A stretch of DNA of 64,000 bases from IMG/VR virus record IMGVR_UViG_3300042558_004400, positions 38,800 through 102,799 of that record; one strand, given 5' to 3'. The stretch is from a virus. The notes below the pieces were generated by a model. It worked only from the letters and a program-made list of their open reading frames with translations. It ran no database searches and was not told the DNA's origin. Positions 13,374 to 64,000 of the stretch are shown here, piece after piece (within the stretch, counting starts at the first letter, position 1; the number at the start of each line of letters is the position of its first letter). A program made the position numbers and the translations under genes.

Positions 13374-14843
13374 CTAAATCACTCTCATTGAATCAGCTAA
13401 ATCGCTGACATCAAAATCTGAATCTTGCTTGTAGTTCTCTTGAGTAATTGCTTCATACTCTTCATATGTTTTTCTTTCATCCACATATCTCACTAAAGGA
13501 GAATCGTAAACAAAAGTAGATCCTGTAATTCTATTTTTTGGTATCTGAAGTTGCATGATATTTTCATCTTCAGAGTCATCACCACTAGCTAGCTTTTTAT
13601 CTGTAATGAATATTGTTACTGCACACTTTTGCTGTATAGCTAAAGAACCACCAGTGTCAGACTGTTGAACAACTTCTCTTTTTTCTTTCATTCTATTTGA
13701 GTTTTCCTGAGCAGTGATAATAAGCACGCAGTTCATATCTCTGGCCAGCTTCTCTAAGCGAACCATCATCTCTTCAAACTCGCCCCATCGAGGTTTACCT
13801 TTTCCACCTCTTGTAAACATAGATTGGATTGTATCTATAACGATAACATCTGGAACACGATCGTCACTTCCCATGATATCTCTAAGCCATCTCTCTAAAT
13901 CTTCAAAATAAGGAGTCTCAGGGTCGTGTCTAACCATGAACCTATCCCCCCATTCATTAAGCTTATCTCTAAAGATTCCAAGATACTTACTTTTTTGTTC
14001 TTCGTTCCAAGTTGCTGACTCTTTGTAAACATTCTTTCCAATTATTTGAGTCATTAAAACTCTTTCCCAGTGAGCAATTGCTTCTTCAAAGTTTACATAC
14101 AACACCTTGTAGCCTGAATCAGCCCAGTGATTAATCAGACATTTTGCGAATGTACTCTTGCCCTTTCCTGATCCTGCAATTATTGCATGCACAGCGCCTT
14201 TGAAGAATCCACCTTCATCAGTATAGCCCATAGCTCTATTTAAAGCTTTGTATTGAGTTGGCAAAAAGTTTGGTATCTCTAATAAGTCTTCTGCTCTTTT
14301 CGATATGTCATTAGCGGTAGTTACACTATCTAGAGGGTTGTAATTCAATTCGTTTTCAAGATCTTTAATATCAGAAGTAATCTGCGCTATTCTTGATATG
14401 TCTTTTTCATTCTTTTCTCCCTTTTGAGTTATTAAGATCTGAAGTTCTTGTAGAGAATCTAATTGTTTTCTCTTATTGGCCTTGTGTTTAACCAACTTAG
14501 TAATAGACTCCGGTGTAGACAGCTCCATGGACATTAGAATATCCATCATTGCGTCAACCCCAGATGTTCCACCTAGAGCAGAGTAAATGTCTGTCTCTGA
14601 GTCTAACCACACTTTAAAAGCTATAGGGTTTACTTCGTCTAGTTTTGTCGTATGATGATATGCCAGTAGTGCTTTATAAAACTCATTTATCCCAGTCTGA
14701 CCATGTATGGTGCCTACTATGTCTTCTGGTAAAAAAGCATCGAAGAAAACTATTGCATCTTTTTCTCTAAGCGAAAGAGCAAATATCTGATACTCGACTG
14801 GGAATTCTTTTTCTTTTTGTTCCGTGTCTAGTTCAGTTTCCAT
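13374..14843 (-). CDS. DnaB-like replicative helicase
   Basis: This 489-residue RecA-fold helicase unwinds DNA at the phage fork. It has an N-terminal helical domain (about 15-120), a linker with a coiled-coil stretch (about 120-170) and a C-terminal ATPase with Walker A AGSGKGKST (223-231), an NFEEA motif after it, Walker B VIVIDTIQSM near 340 and a QxxKNRITG-like arginine-finger region near 440. The length fits DnaB/gp41-type proteins. It overlaps the nuclease gene stop by 11 nt, at the head of the replication module. Confidence 0.93.
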   Translation of the reverse strand: METELDTEQKEKEFPVEYQIFALSLREKDAIVFFDAFLPEDIVGTIHGQTGINEFYKALLAYHHTTKLDEVNPIAFKVWLDSETDIYSALGGTSGVDAMMDILMSMELSTPESITKLVKHKANKRKQLDSLQELQILITQKGEKNEKDISRIAQITSDIKDLENELNYNPLDSVTTANDISKRAEDLLEIPNFLPTQYKALNRAMGYTDEGGFFKGAVHAIIAGSGKGKSTFAKCLINHWADSGYKVLYVNFEEAIAHWERVLMTQIIGKNVYKESATWNEEQKSKYLGIFRDKLNEWGDRFMVRHDPETPYFEDLERWLRDIMGSDDRVPDVIVIDTIQSMFTRGGKGKPRWGEFEEMMVRLEKLARDMNCVLIITAQENSNRMKEKREVVQQSDTGGSLAIQQKCAVTIFITDKKLASGDDSEDENIMQLQIPKNRITGSTFVYDSPLVRYVDERKTYEEYEAITQENYKQDSDFDVSDLADSMRVI

Positions 14844-15477
14844 CTTGTTTTCTTTTTTCTTTCATTGTTTTATAATAAGCTTTTCTACTTTCAGAGTTCT
14901 TCTTCTTAGCCTCTAAGTAAAATTGATTATTTTTTAATGTTCTTTTCTGAACACGTACTGGCACATTGGGTGCACTCTTTATGGCCTGTAACATTCTATC
15001 ATAAACAGACTCTTCTGATAGGTTGTCATTGTACCTAAATACGATAAGAGCTATCCCTAACTCTTTGCACATCTGCATCTTTTTTTCATCTCTTTTTTGT
15101 GCTTCTTCAAATTCATACTTTGTATCAAAGAATCTTTGAGTATAAAAAAAATGCTGCCTACCATGATACTCTGCAGCTAGGTTGTACTTTGGGCAATAAA
15201 CATCTAGTCTTAGCTTATCGCCTAGGTGATGCTCGTTAACGATTTCTTCTCCTGGTAAAAGTTTTTTCATAACTAGAGTCAGGGCAGTTTGGCCTCTTGA
15301 CATCTTTTTATTTTTATCTTTTATCCAAGAAAGACCTAATTGTTTTATTCTTTTATTTAGGTCAGGAACTGAATATGATAGTTCTGCTGCTATTTGAGTT
15401 GTAGATAAATTGCTTTCAAACAAAAGATCTTTGAGAAACTCATCATCGTCTTGTTGTTCTTCCCATTTTTTCTTCAA
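14833..15477 (-). CDS. HTH plus PD-(D/E)XK endonuclease
   Basis: The N-terminal part (about residues 15-55) has a helix-turn-helix (STTQIAAELSYSVPDLNKRI). The middle carries LRLDVYCP...LAAEYHGRQHF, the D...E pattern of Vsr/DUF559-like nucleases, followed by Lys-rich helices. It may be a site-directed or structure-specific phage endonuclease, possibly a free-standing homing-type enzyme. The start is uncertain: TTG 15477 is preferred because AAAGAGG lies six bases before it, whereas the longer frame to TTG 15501 has no site. Overlap with the upstream gene is 35 nt. Confidence 0.7.
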   Translation of the reverse strand: MKKKWEEQQDDDEFLKDLLFESNLSTTQIAAELSYSVPDLNKRIKQLGLSWIKDKNKKMSRGQTALTLVMKKLLPGEEIVNEHHLGDKLRLDVYCPKYNLAAEYHGRQHFFYTQRFFDTKYEFEEAQKRDEKKMQMCKELGIALIVFRYNDNLSEESVYDRMLQAIKSAPNVPVRVQKRTLKNNQFYLEAKKKNSESRKAYYKTMKEKRKQDGN

Positions 15478-16120
15478 GTGCACCCTCTTTATTTCTATCA
15501 AATGCTCGTGCTACAGTTAGTGTTTTTCCAAAGTCTAAGATTGACATCTTTGTTTTTTCCCAAAGCTTAGGAGCTATAGCAGAAGCAAACATAGGGCAAT
15601 CAAGAATGCACATTTGATATTCACCATCGAACTCAGACACTTGAGCTAATATTGAATCTACCTTATCATAAAAATCATTGTATGGGACTTGTATGAAAGC
15701 AGAGTCTTTAGAAAAAAACTTTCCAATATTTGATTTATGCTGGAAAGAGATTACCAATACCTTGTTATGCTTGAAGTAGTACTGCATGAATGTTTTAAAT
15801 ATGTCATAGTCTTCATTGATATAATTCTCAAGGAAGCATGAATCATAAAATACTTTATCCTTTAGGCCAACCTTGCTAAGCTTATCCTGTTGTGAATAGA
15901 TGAAGTCAGGCTGTATTCCTGCAATATACTGAGGGTCATTAGAGGTGATGCTAGTTAGTATTGATTGAACAAAATTCTTTGGTGGTTTTTTATCGCCCTT
16001 AATATCGCCAATAATAGAAAAAAATGAAGATCTCGTATATGATACAAAGGCAAATCTTTTTTTCTTTTCTATAAGATCTGTTACTTTTATTATTGTTTCT
16101 TTAGTATTATATGTTTTCAT
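15443..16120 (-). CDS. Possible GT-D-type glycosyltransferase
   Basis: From ATG 16120 (ATGA overlap with the next gene, GGAAC upstream) the product has 225 residues. Alternating strands such as FAFVSYTRSSFFSII, KVLVISFQH and YQMCILDCP, with SILDFGKTL near the end, resemble the GT-D/DUF1792 fold of bacterial glycosyltransferases. No exact catalytic motif (RxGDGE) is present, so the call is tentative. The neighbouring GT2 gene supports a sugar-transfer context. It could be another alpha/beta enzyme. Confidence 0.5.
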   Translation of the reverse strand: MKTYNTKETIIKVTDLIEKKKRFAFVSYTRSSFFSIIGDIKGDKKPPKNFVQSILTSITSNDPQYIAGIQPDFIYSQQDKLSKVGLKDKVFYDSCFLENYINEDYDIFKTFMQYYFKHNKVLVISFQHKSNIGKFFSKDSAFIQVPYNDFYDKVDSILAQVSEFDGEYQMCILDCPMFASAIAPKLWEKTKMSILDFGKTLTVARAFDRNKEGALEEKMGRTTRR

Positions 16121-17162: not shown

Positions 17163-17906
17163 CTATAATTTAGATCTAATAGCTGTAGCAGATATAGCTT
17201 GAAGTTCAGGAGAAAGATCAACTTTTTCTATTTTGTATCCAACATCTCTACCATAAATTATATTGGTAATGTTTGGAAATTGAAGAACAAAAGGATTTTT
17301 TTCTTTTGATTCAATAAACTGTTTAACTTCAGAATAAGTAAAGGGATCTTTTTCTGAGGTATTATAAGTAGATCTAACTCCAACTACAACTTGATTAGTT
17401 CTTTTGTGGGCTTCTATCTTGAGTGCAGAGTGTCCATCATGCCAAGGCTGATAACGGCCAAGCAACAAAGTAGTTGGCTTAGTCCAGTCTACGAGCTTAA
17501 ATCGATCAATAACAAAGTCAACTTCTTGTTCAATAGTAAGATGTGGCTTTATTCTAATGTCATAATTTATTGGATCTTGCCATATAGCGTTAGTATCTTT
17601 ATATTGACTTTCATCTATTCTATCTACCCATATAATTTTATCGGCCTGACCAAAAGATTCTCTTGTAGCCTCTGTAGGACATATGAAGTCAACTACGACA
17701 TCTCTATCTTGATCAGAAATAAGTCTGGCAATAGCCCCAACTCTTCTCGCTTGTTCTATACGGTCCTCTATAGAGAAGCCGAGATCAGAGCTAAGATCAG
17801 CTCTTACTGCATCAGCATTAATATGAATTGCGTTAGTCTTAGCTGCCAATTGAGTAGCTAGCGCTGTTTTGCCAGCTCCCGGCAAACCTATAATTAATAT
17901 TATCAT
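17163..17906 (-). CDS. APS-kinase-like / nucleotidyltransferase fusion
   Basis: Residues 1-140 look like adenylylsulfate kinase: Walker A GLPGAGKT (7-14), D32-x-x-R35, and a GFSIEDRIEQARRVG stretch (43-57) typical of CysC, then FICP. Residues 145-247 form a HxGH-superfamily nucleotidyltransferase, with GRYQPWHDGH (H156, H159) and a closing ISATAIR (238-244), closest in wording to NMN adenylyltransferases but also the fold of ATP sulfurylase. PAPS synthesis (sulfurylase plus APS kinase) or NAD salvage are both possible. The 4-nt overlap with a sulfotransferase-like gene favours PAPS, which is inference. Confidence 0.75.
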   Translation of the reverse strand: MIILIIGLPGAGKTALATQLAAKTNAIHINADAVRADLSSDLGFSIEDRIEQARRVGAIARLISDQDRDVVVDFICPTEATRESFGQADKIIWVDRIDESQYKDTNAIWQDPINYDIRIKPHLTIEQEVDFVIDRFKLVDWTKPTTLLLGRYQPWHDGHSALKIEAHKRTNQVVVGVRSTYNTSEKDPFTYSEVKQFIESKEKNPFVLQFPNITNIIYGRDVGYKIEKVDLSPELQAISATAIRSKL

Positions 17907-18613
17907 AAGATAAACCTATCTTTTTTAGTAGTAGACAATCCTATAACTCTATCATAGGAGTTATAAGCTAGTTGCATTATATCATCAAACCTAGAGGTCA
18001 TAAGATATTCTTGCATTTTGATATCACGGCTAGAATGAGGCTCTACTTCATGAGGATCTACATATTCTGTAGCAGGTAATAACTTAGCAATGGACTTTGT
18101 TAAAGAATTATTGTTATCGCCGGCAATAGAATCAAACGGAACAACAAAGATATCATCAATATTATTGTATATAAAATCTGTCATTCTAATATAGAATAAA
18201 AAACATTTTTCTATATAAAGATAATCATCTTCAGTATAGATATAATCCTTTAAAGGATTTAAAATTCCGTTTACATTATTGTGATGGATAAATTCAGATA
18301 TATAAGAACTGACTGATTTTAAAGGATCTCTAAAAGTAGAAAAAACAAAATGATTATCACTAATTGCCTCTTTAAAAGCAACTTCCTTATGACACAAGGG
18401 AAATGGCATAGCTGCTTGGGAAAAAGCTAAAAGGATCTTTCTTCTAAGATATCTATTGCCTTGTCTTGGAAAACCGTCAACAGTAACTTTAAAAAAACCT
18501 TCTTTTCTAACTTGAAAATCTATGTTATCTATATAGAGATCATCAGTGGTCTCAACCCATGCTCTATTAATTTTAGACCATCCACCGGAATCAGGAGCTA
18601 AATATTTTTTCAT
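17903..18613 (-). CDS. Sulfotransferase-like protein
   Basis: The 236-residue protein has VDGFPRQGNRYLRR (45-58), matching the 5'-phosphosulfate-binding loop (GxPRSGTTxL type), and FSTFRDPLKSVSSYI (91-105), matching the 3'-phosphate loop (R-x-P-x-x-x-x-x-S). A His in CHKE (75) could serve near the active site. Such enzymes move sulfate from PAPS to a sugar, protein or lipid. The neighbouring APS-kinase-like gene could supply PAPS, and nearby glycosyltransferases could supply a sugar acceptor. Acceptor and activity are unproven, and the first 40 residues have no clear match. Confidence 0.7.
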   Translation of the reverse strand: MKKYLAPDSGGWSKINRAWVETTDDLYIDNIDFQVRKEGFFKVTVDGFPRQGNRYLRRKILLAFSQAAMPFPLCHKEVAFKEAISDNHFVFSTFRDPLKSVSSYISEFIHHNNVNGILNPLKDYIYTEDDYLYIEKCFLFYIRMTDFIYNNIDDIFVVPFDSIAGDNNNSLTKSIAKLLPATEYVDPHEVEPHSSRDIKMQEYLMTSRFDDIMQLAYNSYDRVIGLSTTKKDRFIL

Positions 18614-52945: not shown

Positions 52946-54166
52946 TTATCTTCTAGTCCGGCTATCCTTTAATCCTAACTCTGCACTGATTTCATTGCTA
53001 ATCATTATTAAATCTGGATGGAGATCATAAGAAAGCGTTTGCATGTGAGTTAGAAGAAGATCTAACGCTTTCATGTAGTCAACTTTTTTAGCTACAAAAT
53101 TGTTTTTTCCTAAAGTTATTTCTTGAGCTTTACTTACGCCTAATCCCATTATGTCAAATCCTCTACCAAAAGCATGGTCGCTAACGCTATTGGTATTGCC
53201 TAAATCTTCACTAGTCAATGCTTTAAAATTATTACCTATGATACCTCTTTCGGTACCTTGTCCGCCTCTAATGTGCAAGCTGTTTGTCAGCTGTGACATT
53301 AATTCTATTAATGCTGCAGAAACTTTACATAATTTTTTGCCAGTTCCTAATAATGTTTTATCAATTGTAACCGAACCTAATTTACCTGTTCCATCTGCTG
53401 TATATCCTCCACCTTGAACAATGTCGAATCCTAATGTTTTAAGATCTTGTTTTTCTGAATTTGTATCAAAGTCTAAATTAAAATCATAGAAATTTGCATC
53501 AAAATTAGCTTTATTATTTAGTTCTTTTAATTTTTTAGCATACTCTTGTTTTTCTTGTTCTGACAATTGATCTACTACAGCTATTGCTCTTGATCCACCG
53601 TTGTACGCTTCAGCATCCGTAGATAGGACATAACCCTGAAGACTATGCGCTAACGCCTCTCCTTGAGATCCCGTTACAGTACCTGTACTAGAATTTGTTC
53701 CACCTGCAGCAGATCCAGAGTCAGTAGCTGATTTTGAATTTATAACAGCATCCATGGCCGAACTAAATCCACCAGGTGCATAACCAGTCGTCATCAAGGA
53801 TTGTTTTGCAATTTCTTGTCTTGCATCTGCTCCAGTTAAATACGTATTTGCATCCGGATTGTTGGGGTCAATTATCTTTACGTTGTCATCTATATCTCCA
53901 GCCATGGATATTATGCCGTGCAAAGAGGACTGCACGTTTTGTATGTATCCATTTATTGCAAAAGCAGGATTGCGATAGATGCCTTCACCCTGAATAACTT
54001 TTAATGGATCTGAAGATGTTAAAGTCTTGCCAGTTAAGTCTTCTCTAGATTGGGTAGTATTGGTGTAGGTTGGTTTTCCATTTGGATAAAATGTTTCAGA
54101 TATTTTTGTTGCACTAGACTGAGAATTATTTAGATCATCAACATTAAGATTGATATCACCTGACAT
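52946..54166 (-). CDS. M15-type peptidase part of a tail peptidoglycan hydrolase
   Basis: The 406-residue frame is disordered and Gly/Ser-rich at first. Near residue 320 it reads SVSDHAFGRGFDIMG, the H-x6-D zinc-binding pattern of M15 peptidases (D-Ala-D-Ala type). The matching H-x-H lies in the open frame at about 52860. Rejoining with the two downstream frames gives a hydrolase of about 720 residues with peptidase and transglycosylase domains. A strong GGAGGAGG site precedes ATG 54166. It is expected in the tail tip for cell-wall entry. Confidence 0.75.
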   Translation of the reverse strand: MSGDINLNVDDLNNSQSSATKISETFYPNGKPTYTNTTQSREDLTGKTLTSSDPLKVIQGEGIYRNPAFAINGYIQNVQSSLHGIISMAGDIDDNVKIIDPNNPDANTYLTGADARQEIAKQSLMTTGYAPGGFSSAMDAVINSKSATDSGSAAGGTNSSTGTVTGSQGEALAHSLQGYVLSTDAEAYNGGSRAIAVVDQLSEQEKQEYAKKLKELNNKANFDANFYDFNLDFDTNSEKQDLKTLGFDIVQGGGYTADGTGKLGSVTIDKTLLGTGKKLCKVSAALIELMSQLTNSLHIRGGQGTERGIIGNNFKALTSEDLGNTNSVSDHAFGRGFDIMGLGVSKAQEITLGKNNFVAKKVDYMKALDLLLTHMQTLSYDLHPDLIMISNEISAELGLKDSRTRR

Positions 54167-57100
54167 ACTTACCTCCTCCTCCGACTGTATACTCAGAAAC
54201 TGGATTAAGTTGAGGCATATAGTCCTTTGGCGTTTCTACTGATTTCTGTTGGTACTGAGTTCCTGTCATATAAACTTGTGCTAGGCCTGAAGCTATCAAT
54301 TCCCAGTTAAGAGTAACTGGTCTTCCATCTTCATGGTACTCATCCCAAGATACAACTGGCCATTCAGAAGCTGTTTCGTACAGTTCATTAGTTATCAGAA
54401 CATTCATTAAAACATTAAATAGTTTCTTTTCTTCTAAGGTCATGGAATCAAGAGGATCGGAATCTCCGGCCTTAACAAAATGTTCTAACAAATCTGTCAT
54501 TCCATCAAGCGATGCATAAATTTTATTAAAATTAATAAACATTATTGAATCTTGATAGAATTTTTTTCTTACATTTTCTTTAATAGTTTCTTTAAAGTCT
54601 ACAACAAATTGTGTATTTTGTTGTGCAATAAATATACTTCTAAGTTCTTGAATTAAGTTTTGATAAACATTTGAATCTGTTGTAGAAAAGACTGTAGCCA
54701 TATATCTATCTTCGGCATTTGCGTAGCTTCCAGATTTATATGCAGATGTGTAGTTAGATGGTATATTTTGTTCTGATCCGGGTTCATAAGCATTATCGGT
54801 AGTTATTATTTTAGATGGATCTTTTGGATTGATTCTTAGAACTATAAGTTTGCCTTTGACTGCTTGCTGAACATAGTTCATAGCCTTTCCTGCAGAAGAG
54901 TTTTCATTGATAAACGCCGTTTTTGTTCCATCACTAGTGTTACCTGTTCCAAATTTAACTAATTCAGCTGCGTTTATTCCGTCAAATCTAACTGTATAAG
55001 TATTTGCTGATGCTTCTCCGCCAAATATAACATCTTGTACTTCGAAAGTGTCACCGTCTTTAACATGCGTAACTTTGACTATTGCTTTGAAGGATTCGTT
55101 TAATTCAGTTTTATCTGGGCCAATTCCAGAATACTTTAAAATTTGAGAATGAACAATTGCATTTTCAAGACTTATATGCCTGATTAAGCTTCCAATTTCT
55201 TTTTCTCTCCAACCCATACTTTTAAGTAGATCATCACTTCTAATGTATAAGTTGCCTTCTGCAGAACGAGTATTAGACCTAACTCCCAAAATTCCTGGAA
55301 GTATTTTTATAGAATGATACCTACCGACTACCATGCCTTGATTAAAGGATAGCCCAGCATCCATTGGTTGACCGTTTTTATTTAAGTACTGAATATAACA
55401 TCCGTGTTGATCCAAAACATTATCTCTAATCTTCTTCCAACCATTCCAGATTCCGTCACTTAACAACGCCATTCCTCCAGCAGCAACTCCAGCCGCCGTA
55501 CCACCAGAAACTACACCTGCTACAGCTATGACGCCAGCTGATATTACTGGCATTGCGAGAGCACTAAAGACAGCCATTCCAGTAGATCCTGCTTGTCTAC
55601 CAGTGTTTGCTTTAGATAACGCTTCTAGTCTTTCTCTTGCACTTGGCAATTGCTCTGCAGCTTGGTTAGCCATAATGTCTTTAACCAAAGCAGAGTGTCC
55701 GTGAGTATATTGCATGGCACCTGTTAGCTGCGTCTTTAGACTTTGAGACAATGAGTCAACAGATACATCACCATTTGTAGTTAGTAGAGAATTGCTAGAT
55801 GGGTTACCAAGTAAGAACCTTGAGCTATTTCTTAAATCTTGCATACTAAAGTGTCCTGATATCCAAGATGACATAAACCATCTTGCTGGATCGTTAACTG
55901 TTACAAATGCATTTGGAGTAATAGAAGTTACAAATCCCATTTGAGGTGTGAAGTGATGGACTACTTGTTCTACTTCAAATATTCCATACATTCTTTCATA
56001 AACGTCTGCTAGATACACAAGGTCAAATGGTCTTATGTCTGCATTACCTATAACTATTAACTCTCCACCATAAATATCTTTTAATGATTCTTTCAAATGT
56101 GAGAGTGCTACCCTCTTTGCTGTTAGCTCATCTGGTTCACCTGAAGCTGATTTTGCTATTCCTCTAAATGTTTCCATTGGATGCATAATAGGATGAAGAA
56201 TTCCAGTTATTCCTGAACCCTTGAGGTTATCAAAAAATATTCCTGTTTCTACAGTTTTCTCAACTTGCCTTTCAGGCGGAGCTGCTTTATCTAATGCTAC
56301 AGTTACCGGATACTTTCCATCTGAAACTGCAGTTATTTGAGTAGCAACGTTTCCTATATTTTCTTTTATAGTATTAGAAAGTATATGCGTGAAAGAACTA
56401 ATGTAATGTATTCTTTGGAATGGTTCTCTGACTTCTACAACTGGCTCTCCATACTCTCTGGTGAATGGATTATCGACTGCCCTTAAAAGCGTGCCTGGTC
56501 TGCCCATGGAATAATAAATTGAATCATTATAAGCTTTATTTAATATATTAGCTTGTTGAGTAAAGTTTTCTAGTTGAGTTAAACCATATCCCATTTGTTG
56601 CATTGACATTTGAAACATGTTCATAAGCCCGCCAAGAGCAGATGTAAAGGCATTATATATAGGCCCTATGTTTCTGTCCCAAAAGTTATTAATATCTGTC
56701 TTCAACCCTGTAAAGAAGTTTGATGCACTGTTTCCTTCTTTAGCGTGTTTTTGCAATAGCTTAGTAAATGCACCACTATCTGATGCGTAGTTAACATCAT
56801 AGTCTATAAAGGCTTGCCAGATTACATCGACTGGCCTAAAACTCCAATCGTCATCATCTCCACCAAGCAGCCAAGATCCAACGGACTCTACAACGGCACC
56901 TCCGACAGCACCGACTACTGCTACAGGGCTTCCAACTGTTGCTACAATTCTAGCGGTGTCCCCTCCAACTGCTCCAGCTATTGCAGGCGCTACACCTGAA
57001 CCTATTTTAGCACCTGTTGCTCCAACTCGTTTTTTGTCTGGTCTTAAGACTAACCACGCTCTTGCATATGGATCTTGCCACATCTTTTGTCTAAAGACTC

Positions 57101-60100
57101 CAACCATTAATAGGTACAACTGCTTAGGAGTTTTTATTTTTGCCAAATATTCTTCTACTTGGTCTTCAGTAATTTGCGTATCAAAATCAAAGTTAGGATT
57201 GTTTTTTGAGGCTTCTTCAATTCTTCTAAAGTCTGCTGCTGATGCTGGAGCAGTGGTCGTAGTAGGAGTTGGTGATGTAGTAGAACCGGCTGCTGCCTTT
57301 GCTTTTGCTTCACTGAATAGATACATCCTCGCATATTGCTCTACAGTAGATTTAATGCCAGCAACTTTTTTGTATACCAAAGCATTTAATGCGTCAGTTA
57401 AACCTTTTCCTTCATTGATTATTGGCTTTGAATTTTCATCATATCCATCAAAGCCTTGGTTGACATATTCTTTAATTGCAACATCTACAGCTTCTACTCT
57501 TGAGGAATTTTTATTTACCCAGTCAGCCCCCAGCAAAGTTTCAAATTCTCTTGAGCCTCCATTCCCTTTGCTGACGTTGAAGTCTTGCAAAAAGTTTTCC
57601 GTTTTGCTACTTAACAATTGGAATATCATATCAGTTGATTCTTTATCATCATCTGGATCTAAATTATATATAGCTTTCCATATATTTTTTGTTGAAGAAT
57701 AATTATGATATCCAATTCTAAATTGATCCCAAATGTTTTGAGCTTCGCCAACTGTTCTTCCGTTTCCAGCTATAACTTTAACTTCTGAGTCAAACTTTTC
57801 ATCAAACATAGACCTTGCTTGGATAGATGTGGTATCTATTATGTCATATATAGCAGAAAAATGAGTAAAAGTTTTATCTCCTGATTCTTTTGTTGCTTTT
57901 TTATCTTGTTCTCTTTTGTCTCTTAGAGTATCTTGCTTTAGGTCATCGTAATTAGCATTTGCTACACTGTCAAAATATTGCGTATAGTTTCCGCCACTGG
58001 ACAAGAACTCTTGCATTTCTGCTACTGTCCTTAAAGCCAATGTATCATCAATACTATAAACAAAAGATGGCCTAATTCCAACTCCAGATCTATCCTTAGA
58101 TATAAAGCTTTTTCCTATAGCTGGTAAATCATTTGCTTCTGGACCTGTTCTGTCTGGGTTTTGTCTATCTTCAACACTTCTAAAGGATCCAAAACCTATT
58201 ATCATTTGATTGTCTTTATCCGGCGTATCAGTGCTATCACTGCTTCTTCTGTCTAAACTTTTAAGAGTAAATGTTTTAGCTTGGTTCATGGAAGTTGTTA
58301 CGACTCCCAGTGGAGTTGAGTCTGGCACAAAAGTAAATCTGCAATCTACAAGATCTAGTTCTTGTGCACCAATTGTGTCATACTGTTTATCATTGTCGGC
58401 TCTAAGTTGAGTATCATTATTTAATTTATCTGGTAAATTTTCTGATGGAAAAACAATCTTTCCATTGTCTTTTATCAAAAGACCCAAGAAGTAGGCAGCA
58501 TCTGGAGAAACAATAGCGTCTATATCTGTTGCTCCCCAAAGGAAATATGCTGGTGCACATACTACTGCTTGTTTTGTATTTTCATTATAAACTAAAACTT
58601 TTCTTTTCTTATAATCTGCAGCGGTCCCAACTAAATCTCCGTCAGTAAAGTTATAGGCGCTGTTAAAAGCTTCCCTTGCTTTACTTCCTGCTTCGCCTGC
58701 CTTATATGGCCATTTCATAGCAATATAGAATTGTTCGTGCAAAGCATCTTTGGGCATACCCCACTCAGCAAAAGTTAACTCAGTGCTTGGATCGTAGGAG
58801 TCTTTGTATGCAGGATCTAAATCAAAATAAAAATCTTTATAAGTTTCTGATAATTGTACTCTACCATTTGCAAAGGTAATGTCAGATGCTCCTCGTCTAG
58901 CTATTGGCAGTGGCATCGTTATAACTTGCGATGCAGATATTCCACTAATGCTATTTGTGTTGAGCCCAGATGGATCAAATGCCGCACTGTTCTTGAGTAT
59001 CTCGTCTAATCCCATTGACTTAAGCTTATTGGCGAAAGAAAAATTAAAATCTAAACTCTTAACGTCGCCCTTTGTAGTAACTAAGGCTGTATCTCCAGAG
59101 CTTCCCTCTTGATCAAGTAGAGATTTTTCTACTAATGAAATATTAACTATATTAGACATTCTATCTTGTACGTCTTGTAAACTGTCTATTTTAATAATTT
59201 TGTCAAAGTCAAGAGATTGCAATGTGCCAGTTGTTCTATCTGTAAAGAATGGATATCTAAATCTTATTGGAAGCTGCCCAACCTGTTGGTGATCTTCTTG
59301 TATTCCTCTTTCTATGCCGGACTGTCCAAATGGTAAATGAAAACCAACTTGAGTTTTACCTTTTATTTTTGGCAATTTTGAAACTAGGCCGTTTGCGTTA
59401 TAATATTCTGCTCTTTTATCATCGGTTAAATCTATAAGCTTCCCACCAAGACCATTTCCGTTGGTAGAGCCTGCTTCAAATATGCCAGTAAAACTTGCCA
59501 TTTGTTTTGAAAAGCTTGCCAAATCGTCAGATATACTAGACTCTCTTAGTGCCAAAGCTGCTGCAGCTTCTCCAAGCGGAGAAGTTTCTTTATTGATTCT
59601 AGATAAGATATCATGAAGTTCTGAATCTGGTCCAGAATAGCCAGGTATATTAACTCCATCTTTTTCAGCTTGCTCTTCTGATGGGAAACCTGTAGAGATA
59701 GGAACTACTCCAGATGTGTAAAGCCAATGTGGCTTACCATAGAATATAGTTGATCTATCTTCAAATGGCCTTATTGCTACAATATAGTTTGGCAATAGTC
59801 GTGCACACATTTGAAACATATCCCAAACGGATCTCATATATGTTTGTGCCCTAAACGAAACCTCATCGTATAAGTCATCATCAGTATTATTGGTTAGTCC
59901 CATGGTAGCAAAAAGGCTCTTAAATCCCCTTCCACCCATTGTGTGTAGCAATTTACTTCCCAGTACTGCTGCACCGAATGTTGGATTGATTATACTTGCT
60001 GCTACTATTTGAGTTTTACTATCTCCAACGATTCCTTTTACTGCTCCAGATATTCCGCCTGCTTTTTGTTCTTCTGGAATTGAATTTAAACCACCCTGTC

Positions 60101-63100
60101 TTGCTTCCAAAACTGCAGAGGCATCGGTTGAAGTGGTTGATTCTTGTATTAAGTTAGACCAACTTGACCCAGAAAGTCTATCAAGATATCCAAACTTTTC
60201 ATCCATCATCTTAGCTTCATCAAGGCTGGCCATTGTAGTCCATCCATCGTCTAAGTCTCCGCCCAGAAATTGAGCTATTCCAATGCCGTTGCCTGGATAG
60301 ATGTTTCTTTTGAATATTTCTAAGTCTCTTTGTGTACTAAAGTTTGACCACAAAGATTGCATTGCTCCAACGACGGGTGTTCTAACACTTCCTCCAGCAG
60401 ACTGCATCCCTCCAACAGAGCCAAATGGATTACCTCCAGGAAGAATTCCATTTATCCCTGCTTGCAATCCTCCAGTCATAATATTCATTGCGCTATTTCC
60501 AGCAAGTCCTATTGTTCCAGTTACTGGATTATTGCCAACTGCATTAAAAGCATTGGTTACGCTCTGTTTGTAAGCTCGAGATTTTGCTGCTTCAGCTGCA
60601 GTCAGTGGCTCATATAAAATTGATCCAAAATGTCTTATTCCAAATTTGTTTTCAGAAAACACTGCTCCTCTAGTAGCGTAAGCAAATGCTTCTTTAGTTC
60701 TAGAAGTTCCCATTGATAATAGACGTATCATCAAGTCTCTTGGCTCTGACATCCAAAGTCCAGTATCTACTCCACCATCTATTTTTCCACTATCACCCTT
60801 TTTATTTATAGAGTTAATGATAGGGCTTAATTCAATTGCATCGGATTGACAGATTATAGTTATTATTTCTCCGGTTTCAACCTCTGTAATAATTCCATTA
60901 AAAACTGTTTGCAAAGAATTGGGATTAGATCCATATCCAGCTCTTAAGTGAATTCTAATTCCTGGTTTAATTCTCATATTATTAATTTGTACAATATAAG
61001 AAGAATTCATATTTGACTTAAGATTAAAAGATCTAGTTAATAATTTGTCTACTATCTCTGCGGTACCTGAGGTTAAGTCTGGTTTGTCTATATTGTATAC
61101 TTGTCCGTCAGTAAGCAATGAGGCGACAGTCATCTCTGGCTTGCTTAATTTAGAGTAAGTGTTAGACAGTCTCAACACTAATGTGTCTCCAAGAATGTCT
61201 TCAGATTGAACTATCGAGAAATCAATAACAGATTGTAATCCAAAAAAGTTATCAAATAATTTTACGCCAGCAAAGAAGTTTGAGTCATCTATAAGCCAAA
61301 GCATGTAGGTTGGAAAAGCTCTTAACATTCTTCCGGATATATCTCTATATTGAGAGTCCATCATCATTTTTTGCCAATGCTTACCAAGACTACCCATTGA
61401 ACTATTAGTTGCAGCTGACTGCATCTTATCGGTCCCCGGATGTGCTATTGTAGTCATGTAGCTATTTAGTGACTTTGCTCCAGAAACTCCGGTGTGCGAT
61501 TCTTGGGGATCATTGTCTAGGCAAGTTGGATCAGATATCTGAGTAGTTAATGTGCCTGTTGCTTTTTTGCTAATAGGATCTCTTTTTACATTTTCTTCAG
61601 CTATGTAAAATTTTCCATCAGAACTATTTGAATGACCAAATATGTAACCGCCATCTGGGGTTTGATATATTGCTGGTATCTTACCAACCGATTCAGAATC
61701 TGCAGCAGGGATGTAATGTGTAATTCCAAAATGCTCTGAATCATCTGGATCAAAAGACACTTGATTCATTGCATCGGAATTACTATCCGCTGCTAAAACA
61801 AGCCTATTAAATGCTTGAAGCTGTTCTATCGAACCAGATAAAAGATTTCCTACTTTTAATTCTCCATCTCTAGTGCCAAATTTTAAATCACCAAAATCAT
61901 ATAAAGTATTTTCATCATCTGTAAATTTTTCCACCATATCTTTTAAGATGTTTGGATATTGGCTAGCTAATGAACCGCTTCCAAGACCTTGGCTTTCTAC
62001 TAGCGTATCATTGTTTGTGTCAAGGAATGCAATTTCAAATATCTTAATTGCTTCAAAAGAATTAAGCCCTCTATCTTTGACTAGGTAGTCTTTAACGTTA
62101 TTCAAGCTTTCCTTGTTCCCTATCAACATTTCTTTAACTTGATTAACTATAGGTGTATACTCTGCAGTAGTCATGGCTCCAGACTTATTCAGTCTACCGT
62201 TTTCTACGCCGGGAAGCTTATAGTTATCAACCACGTTATTAATGACATCATTATCAAACATTTCAAACGATCTAAAATAAAAATCTGGGTCGAAAGAACC
62301 CACATGCTTATTTGTTTCCTCGTCTATTATTGCTAACGGCATGTCTGGGTATGTGTTAATGGACGACCATTTTTGTTTTAATCTTAAGAATGGATTTCTT
62401 TTAGTTCCAAATTCTTTAACTAATTCTATTTGAGATTCAGAACTAATTGCTTCTCTTTTTTGTTGAAAAATATCAAAGTCAACAAAAGACAATTGAACAT
62501 TGTAGACGTGAGGGAAAGAGGGTATAGTATCTACACTGTAGGATAGAGGAAGAACATATTTAATACCAGACAGTGCTGTTAATATGTTTTTGATTCCCAT
62601 AAACCCAATAACTCCAGCTGCTTGCTCTAAGCGAGCTAATCCACTTAGGAAGTCAAACATTTTTGTTATTTTAGTTAATTCTTTTTCTCCAAATATAGTC
62701 AAAGACATTGAAACAAAAGAGTCATTGCAGCCAATGTATTGAAACGTTGGTTCGTCTTGCATTTGCAGTTGCATTCTTGCAAGGTTATTGGAAAGTGTTG
62801 TAGAAACTGAATTTACTATAACAGCTTCAGGATCCAATTTAACTTTCATCATGGGAACTTCCCATTCTTTTATGTTAAACTTTCCACCCTTTTTATTTGC
62901 ATTTGCTTCAAATATTGCCTGTATACTTAAATCACTAAAGTATCTTTCGTACAGACTAACGTTAAAAGCGTCTGCATATTCTCTTTCTAACTTACCTCTA
63001 ATGTTTCTCCATTGTTTGGAGTCTCTATCGGTTATGGGTGGAGTAAGAAGTTTTGCTTCTTTGTCAGCAGCGTTGTTTATACTGTAAGCTAGATAACCCT

Positions 63101-64000
63101 TTGGCGCTTTTGCTAATAAGTATATTTCCCATTTATCATCTTTTAGTTTTTGGGTTTCTTCTGCAGAAGGTTGTGCTGGTACTTCAATATCATTAGGCGA
63201 TTTATTGCTCTTGATATAGTTGTACTTAGGAGATGCAGTTATTCCATTTGAATTTAAATAATCTATTGCAATTGCATCATACACTTTATCAAAGACATTA
63301 GAGCTATTAGCTCCTGCTAAGACAACTTCAACTATTTGTTGAGCTATTTTTTTCTTGTATGTACTTACATTTATATCCTGAGAAAGTTGCACTACGGTAT
63401 CTAAGTTTCTATATAAAGCTGCTTCAGATATATCAATTCCAACTTTACTTAGAATGCCTTCCCAAAAACCTCTACCAATGTCAGTTAAGTTTTTTTCTTC
63501 GGTAGATCTAAATGTTGAAACGTCAGGGGAGAACAACTTCGATTGAACTTGATTTGGTATATAAAATTCAATACTATTTCCGTTAGACCATTCATCTGCT
63601 ATATTCATAGAAAGAGTACTTGAATTAGTGTAGTTTTTTTGTCTTTCTTCAATCAATCTAAAATCTGCTGCTGAAGCTGGATCATTTGTTGCGTCGATAA
63701 TTGTTTCAGTAACTTCTTCTTGTACCAACAAAAATTCTTCATTTGAACTTTCCGAAAGAGAGATAGCTGCTCTTCCCATATAGTATCTAAATTTTGCCCA
63801 GTCAATAGCTTGATTAAAATCTTTAATCATCGGTAGGAATGGTTTGTGATTAAACACATTCAACTGAAGGTCTACTACAATAGCAAACGGATAATTAGGA
63901 ACTGTAGATATAGATATATTTGACATAGCTATACCAGTGATGCCAAATACGCTATTCAAGTATTGATTTCTAATAGGTAGTATCGGTGCATATTTGAATG
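54156..64000 (-). CDS. Giant tail/baseplate hub protein with SNase-like C-terminus (partial)
   Basis: The frame is open from the stop at 54156 to the right edge; the TTG at 63959 has no ribosome binding site, so more than 3,280 residues are encoded and the N-terminus is missing. Counting residues from 63959, a hub-like domain lies near 985-1060 (IKPGIRIHLRAGYG, VFNGIITEVETGE). Gly/Ala-rich hydrophobic stretches lie near 1140, 2330 and 2790-2840. A region like a late-control hub follows near 2640-2690. From about 2960 a thermonuclease-like domain is seen (VKDGDTFEV, VRFDGINAAEL, a closing GLAQVYM). The linker PASAADFR-x-IEE occurs near 100 and 2240. Confidence 0.85.
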   Translation of the reverse strand, partial: FKYAPILPIRNQYLNSVFGITGIAMSNISISTVPNYPFAIVVDLQLNVFNHKPFLPMIKDFNQAIDWAKFRYYMGRAAISLSESSNEEFLLVQEEVTETIIDATNDPASAADFRLIEERQKNYTNSSTLSMNIADEWSNGNSIEFYIPNQVQSKLFSPDVSTFRSTEEKNLTDIGRGFWEGILSKVGIDISEAALYRNLDTVVQLSQDINVSTYKKKIAQQIVEVVLAGANSSNVFDKVYDAIAIDYLNSNGITASPKYNYIKSNKSPNDIEVPAQPSAEETQKLKDDKWEIYLLAKAPKGYLAYSINNAADKEAKLLTPPITDRDSKQWRNIRGKLEREYADAFNVSLYERYFSDLSIQAIFEANANKKGGKFNIKEWEVPMMKVKLDPEAVIVNSVSTTLSNNLARMQLQMQDEPTFQYIGCNDSFVSMSLTIFGEKELTKITKMFDFLSGLARLEQAAGVIGFMGIKNILTALSGIKYVLPLSYSVDTIPSFPHVYNVQLSFVDFDIFQQKREAISSESQIELVKEFGTKRNPFLRLKQKWSSINTYPDMPLAIIDEETNKHVGSFDPDFYFRSFEMFDNDVINNVVDNYKLPGVENGRLNKSGAMTTAEYTPIVNQVKEMLIGNKESLNNVKDYLVKDRGLNSFEAIKIFEIAFLDTNNDTLVESQGLGSGSLASQYPNILKDMVEKFTDDENTLYDFGDLKFGTRDGELKVGNLLSGSIEQLQAFNRLVLAADSNSDAMNQVSFDPDDSEHFGITHYIPAADSESVGKIPAIYQTPDGGYIFGHSNSSDGKFYIAEENVKRDPISKKATGTLTTQISDPTCLDNDPQESHTGVSGAKSLNSYMTTIAHPGTDKMQSAATNSSMGSLGKHWQKMMMDSQYRDISGRMLRAFPTYMLWLIDDSNFFAGVKLFDNFFGLQSVIDFSIVQSEDILGDTLVLRLSNTYSKLSKPEMTVASLLTDGQVYNIDKPDLTSGTAEIVDKLLTRSFNLKSNMNSSYIVQINNMRIKPGIRIHLRAGYGSNPNSLQTVFNGIITEVETGEIITIICQSDAIELSPIINSINKKGDSGKIDGGVDTGLWMSEPRDLMIRLLSMGTSRTKEAFAYATRGAVFSENKFGIRHFGSILYEPLTAAEAAKSRAYKQSVTNAFNAVGNNPVTGTIGLAGNSAMNIMTGGLQAGINGILPGGNPFGSVGGMQSAGGSVRTPVVGAMQSLWSNFSTQRDLEIFKRNIYPGNGIGIAQFLGGDLDDGWTTMASLDEAKMMDEKFGYLDRLSGSSWSNLIQESTTSTDASAVLEARQGGLNSIPEEQKAGGISGAVKGIVGDSKTQIVAASIINPTFGAAVLGSKLLHTMGGRGFKSLFATMGLTNNTDDDLYDEVSFRAQTYMRSVWDMFQMCARLLPNYIVAIRPFEDRSTIFYGKPHWLYTSGVVPISTGFPSEEQAEKDGVNIPGYSGPDSELHDILSRINKETSPLGEAAAALALRESSISDDLASFSKQMASFTGIFEAGSTNGNGLGGKLIDLTDDKRAEYYNANGLVSKLPKIKGKTQVGFHLPFGQSGIERGIQEDHQQVGQLPIRFRYPFFTDRTTGTLQSLDFDKIIKIDSLQDVQDRMSNIVNISLVEKSLLDQEGSSGDTALVTTKGDVKSLDFNFSFANKLKSMGLDEILKNSAAFDPSGLNTNSISGISASQVITMPLPIARRGASDITFANGRVQLSETYKDFYFDLDPAYKDSYDPSTELTFAEWGMPKDALHEQFYIAMKWPYKAGEAGSKAREAFNSAYNFTDGDLVGTAADYKKRKVLVYNENTKQAVVCAPAYFLWGATDIDAIVSPDAAYFLGLLIKDNGKIVFPSENLPDKLNNDTQLRADNDKQYDTIGAQELDLVDCRFTFVPDSTPLGVVTTSMNQAKTFTLKSLDRRSSDSTDTPDKDNQMIIGFGSFRSVEDRQNPDRTGPEANDLPAIGKSFISKDRSGVGIRPSFVYSIDDTLALRTVAEMQEFLSSGGNYTQYFDSVANANYDDLKQDTLRDKREQDKKATKESGDKTFTHFSAIYDIIDTTSIQARSMFDEKFDSEVKVIAGNGRTVGEAQNIWDQFRIGYHNYSSTKNIWKAIYNLDPDDDKESTDMIFQLLSSKTENFLQDFNVSKGNGGSREFETLLGADWVNKNSSRVEAVDVAIKEYVNQGFDGYDENSKPIINEGKGLTDALNALVYKKVAGIKSTVEQYARMYLFSEAKAKAAAGSTTSPTPTTTTAPASAADFRRIEEASKNNPNFDFDTQITEDQVEEYLAKIKTPKQLYLLMVGVFRQKMWQDPYARAWLVLRPDKKRVGATGAKIGSGVAPAIAGAVGGDTARIVATVGSPVAVVGAVGGAVVESVGSWLLGGDDDDWSFRPVDVIWQAFIDYDVNYASDSGAFTKLLQKHAKEGNSASNFFTGLKTDINNFWDRNIGPIYNAFTSALGGLMNMFQMSMQQMGYGLTQLENFTQQANILNKAYNDSIYYSMGRPGTLLRAVDNPFTREYGEPVVEVREPFQRIHYISSFTHILSNTIKENIGNVATQITAVSDGKYPVTVALDKAAPPERQVEKTVETGIFFDNLKGSGITGILHPIMHPMETFRGIAKSASGEPDELTAKRVALSHLKESLKDIYGGELIVIGNADIRPFDLVYLADVYERMYGIFEVEQVVHHFTPQMGFVTSITPNAFVTVNDPARWFMSSWISGHFSMQDLRNSSRFLLGNPSSNSLLTTNGDVSVDSLSQSLKTQLTGAMQYTHGHSALVKDIMANQAAEQLPSARERLEALSKANTGRQAGSTGMAVFSALAMPVISAGVIAVAGVVSGGTAAGVAAGGMALLSDGIWNGWKKIRDNVLDQHGCYIQYLNKNGQPMDAGLSFNQGMVVGRYHSIKILPGILGVRSNTRSAEGNLYIRSDDLLKSMGWREKEIGSLIRHISLENAIVHSQILKYSGIGPDKTELNESFKAIVKVTHVKDGDTFEVQDVIFGGEASANTYTVRFDGINAAELVKFGTGNTSDGTKTAFINENSSAGKAMNYVQQAVKGKLIVLRINPKDPSKIITTDNAYEPGSEQNIPSNYTSAYKSGSYANAEDRYMATVFSTTDSNVYQNLIQELRSIFIAQQNTQFVVDFKETIKENVRKKFYQDSIMFINFNKIYASLDGMTDLLEHFVKAGDSDPLDSMTLEEKKLFNVLMNVLITNELYETASEWPVVSWDEYHEDGRPVTLNWELIASGLAQVYMTGTQYQQKSVETPKDYMPQLNPVSEYTVGGGGKYVR

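What the first reader, a model, noticed from the sequence alone, without database searches (positions are those of the whole stretch)
17163..18613. Possible phage PAPS synthesis and sulfotransferase pair
Seen: an APS-kinase-like domain (GLPGAGKT, DAVR, GFSIEDR) fused to a HxGH nucleotidyltransferase, overlapping by 4 nt a protein with 5'- and 3'-phosphosulfate-type loops (DGFPRQGNRYL, RDPLKSVSS). Known: ATP sulfurylase makes APS, APS kinase makes PAPS, and sulfotransferases use PAPS. Inference: the two genes form a sulfation module acting on a sugar or protein made by the nearby glycosyltransferases, perhaps on the virion or host surface. The nucleotidyltransferase half reads more like NMN adenylyltransferase, so NAD salvage is the rival idea.
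Basis: partly seen in the sequence, partly recalled or inferred. Interest (0 to 1): 0.75.

Follow-up and report, generated by a model that had tools for sequence, protein, structure and literature searches.

The report
Phage sulfation pair, compact PAPS synthase
A freshwater phage carries a two-gene cassette that probably makes the cell's 'active sulfate' (PAPS) with an unusually small two-domain enzyme and passes the sulfate to a target through a sulfotransferase; the same enzyme family is in most SAR11 ocean bacteria sampled, where it may fill a gap in their sulfur metabolism.

Summary
ORF K (17163-17906, minus, 247 aa) is an APS-kinase-like domain fused to an HxGH nucleotidyltransferase. 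It overlaps by 4 nt ORF S (17903-18613, minus, 236 aa), a divergent sulfotransferase that no Pfam, PHROG or NCBIfam model matches. K is widespread (over 150 viral contigs). The gene just upstream of K is a sulfotransferase in 16 of 51 de-duplicated viral loci, from five unrelated groups. S-K keeps its 4-nt overlap in relatives whose flanking genes all differ. In SAR11 bacteria K, fused or as two genes, occurs in about 304 of 397 genomes. It is never in the 13 that have CysD, co-occurs with AprA (which makes APS), and in two genomes lies in the aprBA operon. The nucleotidyltransferase half resembles NMN adenylyltransferase (NadM) in sequence and matches no ATP sulfurylase model, but context suggests it does the ATP sulfurylase step. 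NAD salvage is disfavoured. What S sulfates is unknown; the nearby glycosyltransferases do not travel with the pair. No enzyme activity has been shown.

The parts
17163..17906 (-). ORF K: kinase-nucleotidyltransferase fusion (247 aa), proposed compact PAPS synthase
   Evidence: Pfam APS_kinase 6e-16 and CTP_transf_like 1.3e-5; phrog_10255 'kinase' 7.5e-59; AF2 model pLDDT 93.5; best PDB matches are APS kinases
17499..17906 (-). K residues 1-136: APS-kinase-like domain (adenylyl-X 3'-kinase)
   Evidence: alignment with APS kinase 3cr7
17865..17888 (-). P-loop GLPGAGKT (K 7-14)
   Evidence: sequence; G7, L8, G12, K13 invariant
17760..17780 (-). GFSIEDR motif (K 43-49), equivalent to the GFSxxDR segment of APS kinases
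   Evidence: phmmer alignment; F44 invariant and R49 in 106 of 108
17163..17486 (-). K residues 141-247: HxGH nucleotidyltransferase domain, NadM-like in sequence, about 105 aa; proposed ATP sulfurylase substitute
   Evidence: NCBIfam NadM subfamily model 2e-7; PDB NMNAT 2qjt 1.8e-5
17430..17441 (-). HxGH motif HDGH (K 156-159) within GRYQPWHDGH
   Evidence: sequence; H156, G158, H159 invariant
17235..17255 (-). YGRDVGY loop (K 218-224), signature of the family
   Evidence: G219, R220, V222, G223 invariant
17175..17195 (-). ISATAIR motif (K 238-244), nucleotidyltransferase ISxTxxR
   Evidence: sequence; R244 invariant
17903..18613 (-). ORF S: divergent sulfotransferase (236 aa), overlaps K by 4 nt
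   Evidence: own HMM of K-adjacent sulfotransferases; similarity to L077, L058 and L074 proteins; AF2 model mean pLDDT 74.8, top PDB fold matches are sulfotransferases but weak
18446..18478 (-). S 46-56 DGFPRQGNRYL, 5'-phosphosulfate loop (PRxGN)
   Evidence: sequence; R50 invariant in a 14-row alignment
18305..18331 (-). S 95-103 RDPLKSVSS, 3'-phosphate-binding R...S spacing
   Evidence: R95 and S103 invariant in 39 sulfotransferase-like proteins

Best explanation
S and K form a translationally coupled sulfation cassette. K is a compact bifunctional enzyme of active sulfate. Its C-terminal HxGH domain joins ATP and sulfate to adenosine 5'-phosphosulfate (APS) and pyrophosphate, and its N-terminal APS-kinase-like domain phosphorylates the 3'-OH to give PAPS. 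S takes the sulfuryl group from PAPS and puts it on an unknown acceptor. Shown here: the folds and motifs, the conserved APS-kinase and sulfotransferase signature residues, the recurrent pairing with unrelated sulfotransferases, and in SAR11 the exclusion of CysD and the linkage to AprBA. Inferred: the chemistry of each domain, above all that the NadM-like domain does the ATP sulfurylase step (perhaps in reverse in SAR11), and the acceptor.
For: K kinase half: Pfam APS_kinase 6e-16; AF2 model best matches solved APS kinases, several with bound APS; D32, R35, F44 never vary and R49 almost never. Sulfotransferase link: an ST within 6 kb in 29 of 51 de-duplicated K loci versus 0 of 17 and 0 of 19 control loci, and directly upstream in 16, from five unrelated groups; three Pfam sulfotransferase families among the neighbours; R95 and S103 invariant in 39 of them; further STs beside K in contigs of bacterial and archaeal genome sets. 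S-K keeps its overlap in three genomes with wholly different flanks. The two K domains stay together although split, fused or in reversed order. SAR11: strong K in about 304 of 397 genomes, CysD in 13 and none of these with strong K (Fisher 3e-9), Sat in only 18, STs in 23 of 40 K genomes lacking CysD and Sat. AprA in 25 of 28 K genomes versus 6 of 32 without; K inside the operon with aprB and aprA next to Xsc in L320, and with similar neighbours in L321.
Against: No biochemistry. The nucleotidyltransferase half matches NadM models and no ATP sulfurylase model. In SAR11 AprBA could supply APS from sulfite (PMC5069961), so those genomes do not prove that K makes APS. 22 of 51 viral K loci show no ST within the stretch held, and the SAR11 split pairs looked at mostly lie among osmolyte-catabolism genes. 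The ST HMMs were built from K neighbours; the unbiased Pfam test was weaker, 6 of 25 K contigs versus 1 of 25 controls. The S model is of middling quality with no fold match at E <= 0.001.
Confidence: 0.7

Rival explanations
1. K is an APS kinase only in effect: it makes PAPS from APS supplied by the host (CysDN, Sat or AprBA), and the nucleotidyltransferase domain does something else, for example runs APS back to ATP and sulfate, or is regulatory.
For: The kinase half is the clearer homologue. SAR11 has AprBA, which can form APS from sulfite (PMC5069961), and AprA tracks with K.
Against: The nucleotidyltransferase keeps its full set of catalytic motifs in over 100 sequences and stays with the kinase through splitting and reversed domain order, so it is probably an active partner in the same path. 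Three sampled K genomes lack a detected AprA.
Confidence: 0.17
2. K makes, and S uses, another 3'-phosphonucleotide donor, as in Campylobacter where a CysC-like kinase (Cj1415) takes part in making CDP-phosphoramidate 3'-phosphate.
For: A kinase of this kind acting in phosphoramidate donor synthesis is a real precedent (PMC11800397).
Against: Other genes of such a pathway were not noticed beside K, though they were not searched for. The operon with aprBA and exclusion of CysD point to APS. The neighbours belong to sulfotransferase families.
Confidence: 0.06
3. NAD salvage: nicotinamide riboside kinase plus NMN adenylyltransferase.
For: The C-terminal domain matches NadM models at 2e-7 and PDB NMNAT 2qjt at 1.8e-5.
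Against: The kinase half is APS-kinase-like. The domain is about 105 aa against 167-175 for the NadM models, so room for NMN is doubtful. NadD is present in 36 of 40 K-bearing SAR11 genomes. Sulfotransferases and aprBA, not NAD genes, are the neighbours found.
Confidence: 0.03
4. The pairing of K with sulfotransferases only reflects gene-rich accessory islands of large phages, without joint function.
For: 2OG-Fe(II) oxygenases and other accessory genes are also common near K.
Against: Direct upstream position, mostly with overlaps of a few nt, in 16 loci, five unrelated ST groups, and none in control loci from similar phages; transfer of S-K as a unit; the SAR11 evidence on CysD and AprA does not rest on STs.
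Confidence: 0.04

Closest known systems
Bifunctional PAPS synthases (animal PAPSS1/2: APS kinase plus ATP sulfurylase)
   Same: Same proposed chemistry and the same order, kinase first and nucleotidyltransferase second; kinase half recognisably APS kinase
   Different: About 250 aa instead of about 620; the nucleotidyltransferase half matches NadM models and no ATP sulfurylase (PF01747) model
APS kinase CysC
   Same: Kinase domain, P-loop, D..R and GFSxxDR motifs
   Different: Short kinase with a fused or adjacent nucleotidyltransferase; well below the CysC cut-off of NCBIfam (55.5 against 138.7 bits)
NadM-type NMN adenylyltransferase
   Same: GRxQPxHxGH and ISxTxxR motifs
   Different: About 60 residues shorter, family-specific YGRDVGY loop, found with an APS-kinase-like domain and sulfotransferases
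PAPS-dependent sulfotransferases (Pfam Sulfotransfer_1/2/3)
   Same: PRxGN loop and R...S spacing of eight; neighbours of other K genes are members
   Different: S itself is below every Pfam, PHROG and NCBIfam threshold
Phage-encoded cysC reported from freshwater lakes (PMC10914622)
   Same: Phage genes annotated as cysC in freshwater phages
   Different: There read as assimilatory sulfate reduction; here the partner is a sulfotransferase and there is a second domain. Whether that set includes K was not checked

Membership tests
APS kinase family (PF01583) | Profile match over the Pfam cut-off | tested here: met
   59.3 bits against cut-off 21.1, residues 2-84
APS kinase family (PF01583) | NCBIfam CysC equivalog cut-off (TIGR00455) | tested here: not met
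   55.5 bits against 138.7; so a relative, not an orthologous CysC
APS kinase family (PF01583) | Conserved D..R, F and R of the APS site | tested here: met
   Alignment with 3cr7 and conservation in 108 sequences; the role of these residues is from general knowledge
APS kinase family (PF01583) | APS 3'-kinase activity | not testable with these tools
   No assay
ATP sulfurylase Sat (PF01747) | Profile match | tested here: not met
   PF01747 not among matches at E <= 0.1; so K is not a Sat even if it works like one
ATP sulfurylase CysDN | CysD or CysN sequence relation of the nucleotidyltransferase half | tested here: not met
   No CysD match among the 25 shown, and the CysN/CysC fusion models match only the kinase half
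NMN adenylyltransferase NadM (TIGR01527) | Equivalog cut-off | tested here: not met
   23.2 bits against 181.2
NMN adenylyltransferase NadM (TIGR01527) | Nucleotidyltransferase motifs GRxQPxHxGH and ISxTxxR | tested here: met
PAPS-dependent sulfotransferase | Pfam Sulfotransfer match for S itself | tested here: not met
   No match
PAPS-dependent sulfotransferase | 5'-phosphosulfate loop and 3'-phosphate-site R...S spacing of 8 | tested here: met
   R50, R95, S103
PAPS-dependent sulfotransferase | Sulfotransferase fold | tested here: inconclusive
   AF2 mean pLDDT 74.8; top fold matches are sulfotransferases, at E 5e-3 to 1e-2
PAPS-dependent sulfotransferase | Sulfuryl transfer from PAPS | not testable with these tools
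   No assay

The most novel reading that the evidence does not exclude
K is a third kind of ATP sulfurylase, built on an NMN-adenylyltransferase-like domain of about 105 aa and fused or paired with an APS kinase. It supplies PAPS to phage sulfotransferases, and in SAR11 it takes the place of the missing Sat after AprBA and supplies PAPS for sulfation.
Probability: 0.55. Interest if true: 0.87.

Novelty: new variant of a known kind. Interest (0 to 1): 0.77.

Why it matters
If true, some phage genes that surveys annotate as cysC and count as sulfate assimilation may instead be sulfation genes that modify something during infection. It would also bear on an open point about SAR11: it is reported to lack cysDNCHIJ and sat while having AprBA (PMC5069961), and many K-bearing SAR11 genomes encode sulfotransferases with no known PAPS source. 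Both become directly testable with one small enzyme.

Tried and rejected
First automatic extension of the sulfotransferase HMMs drifted into 2OG oxygenases through a fused protein and was redone without iteration. Pfam sulfotransferase scans of 50 viral contigs were too insensitive to settle the enrichment. Sequence search of S in PDB and in the phage collection found nothing. Literature searches for phage PAPS synthases or phage sulfotransferases found no paper on this pairing, in an open-access library only. NAD salvage, a phosphoramidate-type donor and mere island clustering were considered and ranked low.

Full report
Observation. ORFs K (17163-17906) and S (17903-18613), both minus strand, are as described, with S upstream of K and a 4-nt overlap. 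K carries an APS-kinase-like domain (Pfam 6e-16, residues 2-84) and an HxGH nucleotidyltransferase domain (1.3e-5, residues 148-193). S has no match in Pfam, PHROGs, NCBIfam or PDB sequences. The window is part of a 102.8-kb virus record; it encodes a DNA polymerase III alpha, DnaB-like helicase, ThyX and a B12-type ribonucleotide reductase.

Structure. The AF2 model of K has mean pLDDT 93.5. Nearly all of the 50 best solved relatives shown are APS kinases or PAPS synthetases, several with APS bound. The displayed list reflects the kinase half, so the kinship of the other half rests on sequence: NadM models at 2e-7 and NMNAT 2qjt at 1.8e-5. The model of S is fair (mean pLDDT 74.8, residues 1-33 unreliable); its leading fold matches are sulfotransferases, but at E values of 5e-3 and above.

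Relatives in viruses. K has over 150 relatives in viral contigs and six in the annotated phage set, including Stenotrophomonas and Xanthomonas phages. S has 13 loci, all close. Reading the gene just upstream of K showed sulfotransferase-like proteins of quite different sequence. With fixed HMMs, 29 of 51 de-duplicated K loci have one within about 6 kb, against 0 of 17 helicase and 0 of 19 nuclease loci whose stretches do not carry K; in 16 it is the next gene upstream. These HMMs come from K neighbours, which biases the test; with Pfam models the contrast is 6 of 25 against 1 of 25. Of 39 such proteins, Pfam finds Sulfotransfer_1 in 11, _3 in 11 and _2 in 10 (a protein can match more than one), and only R95 and S103 besides the start are invariant. 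That spacing of eight is, from general knowledge, the 3'-phosphate site of PAPS-dependent sulfotransferases.

Unit of transfer. In three relatives (L013, L004, L010) S-K keeps the 4-nt overlap while no other window gene lies nearby; in L012 the surrounding region is conserved too. This ties S to K and unties both from the window's glycosyltransferases and 2OG oxygenase.

Cellular relatives. A scan of bacterial and archaeal genomes gave 21 loci, some of which look like phage contigs, and several lie beside sulfotransferases. K occurs fused, split into two adjacent genes, and in reversed domain order. In the SAR11 order 317 of 397 genomes match; 13 of these are single weak matches that look like ordinary CysC, leaving about 304 (my count). 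CysD is in 13 genomes, none with strong K (Fisher 3e-9; related genomes are not independent, so this P value is generous). Sat is in 18. Of 40 K genomes without CysD or Sat, 23 carry Pfam sulfotransferases and 36 carry NadD.

APS link. AprA, the enzyme subunit that forms or reduces APS, is in 25 of 28 sampled K genomes, 6 of 19 genomes with neither K nor CysD, and 0 of 13 CysD genomes. In L320 the order is cystathionine beta-lyase-like, MFS, K, CADD-family protein, cytochrome c, SET, membrane protein, AprB, AprA, with Xsc nearby; L321 has a split K with similar neighbours. AprB, AprA and Xsc of L320 exceed their NCBIfam cut-offs; the gene I first took for SuyB matches only galactarate dehydratase, below cut-off. 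The published account of Ca. P. ubique states absence of cysDNCHIJ and sat and presence of aprBA, while its Table 3 marks cysC in some strains; that cysC may be the kinase half of K (my inference).

Judgement. That K handles APS or PAPS is strongly supported. That its second domain makes APS is the simplest reading but is open, since host enzymes or AprBA could make APS. That S is a PAPS-dependent sulfotransferase is likely. The acceptor is unknown. Earlier phage cysC reports read such genes as sulfate assimilation (PMC10914622); whether their cysC set includes K was not checked.

Noticed in passing
L306, L307 (SAR11), split kinase and nucleotidyltransferase genes: The split pair lies between DddP-like M24, Rieske, DMGDH/BHMT-like genes and enoyl-CoA hydratase or HalD-like genes; the link to sulfate is not obvious there.
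   Followed up: partly
L316:10246-11220, L317:5530-6495, L318:8934-9914, L319:9013-9996: In four SAR11 genomes a protein of about 325 aa that looks like a pyruvate-kinase barrel domain (Pfam-tested in L319 only) is directly upstream of fused K.
   Followed up: partly
L310:9274-9840, L312:9157-9723: A SIS-domain isomerase-like gene follows fused K directly in two SAR11 genomes.
   Followed up: partly
L038:6765-6968, L255:3283-3495 and many other K loci: A small DUF2061 membrane protein is often the next gene downstream of K in viral contigs.
   Followed up: partly
L268:6004-6936: One ORF of about 310 aa carries the two K domains in reversed order, nucleotidyltransferase first.
   Followed up: no
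SAR11 genomes with PF01747 (18 of 397), for example G301:C1:133557-134159: A minority of SAR11 genomes carry an ATP-sulfurylase-domain gene, mostly in frames of about 340-390 aa; context not examined.
   Followed up: no
window 54156-63998: Very long ORF (3280 aa, runs off the window end), perhaps tail-related; not analysed.
   Followed up: no
window 14833-15501: ORF matching phage HNH and homing endonuclease families between the helicase and a GT-D-like gene.
   Followed up: no
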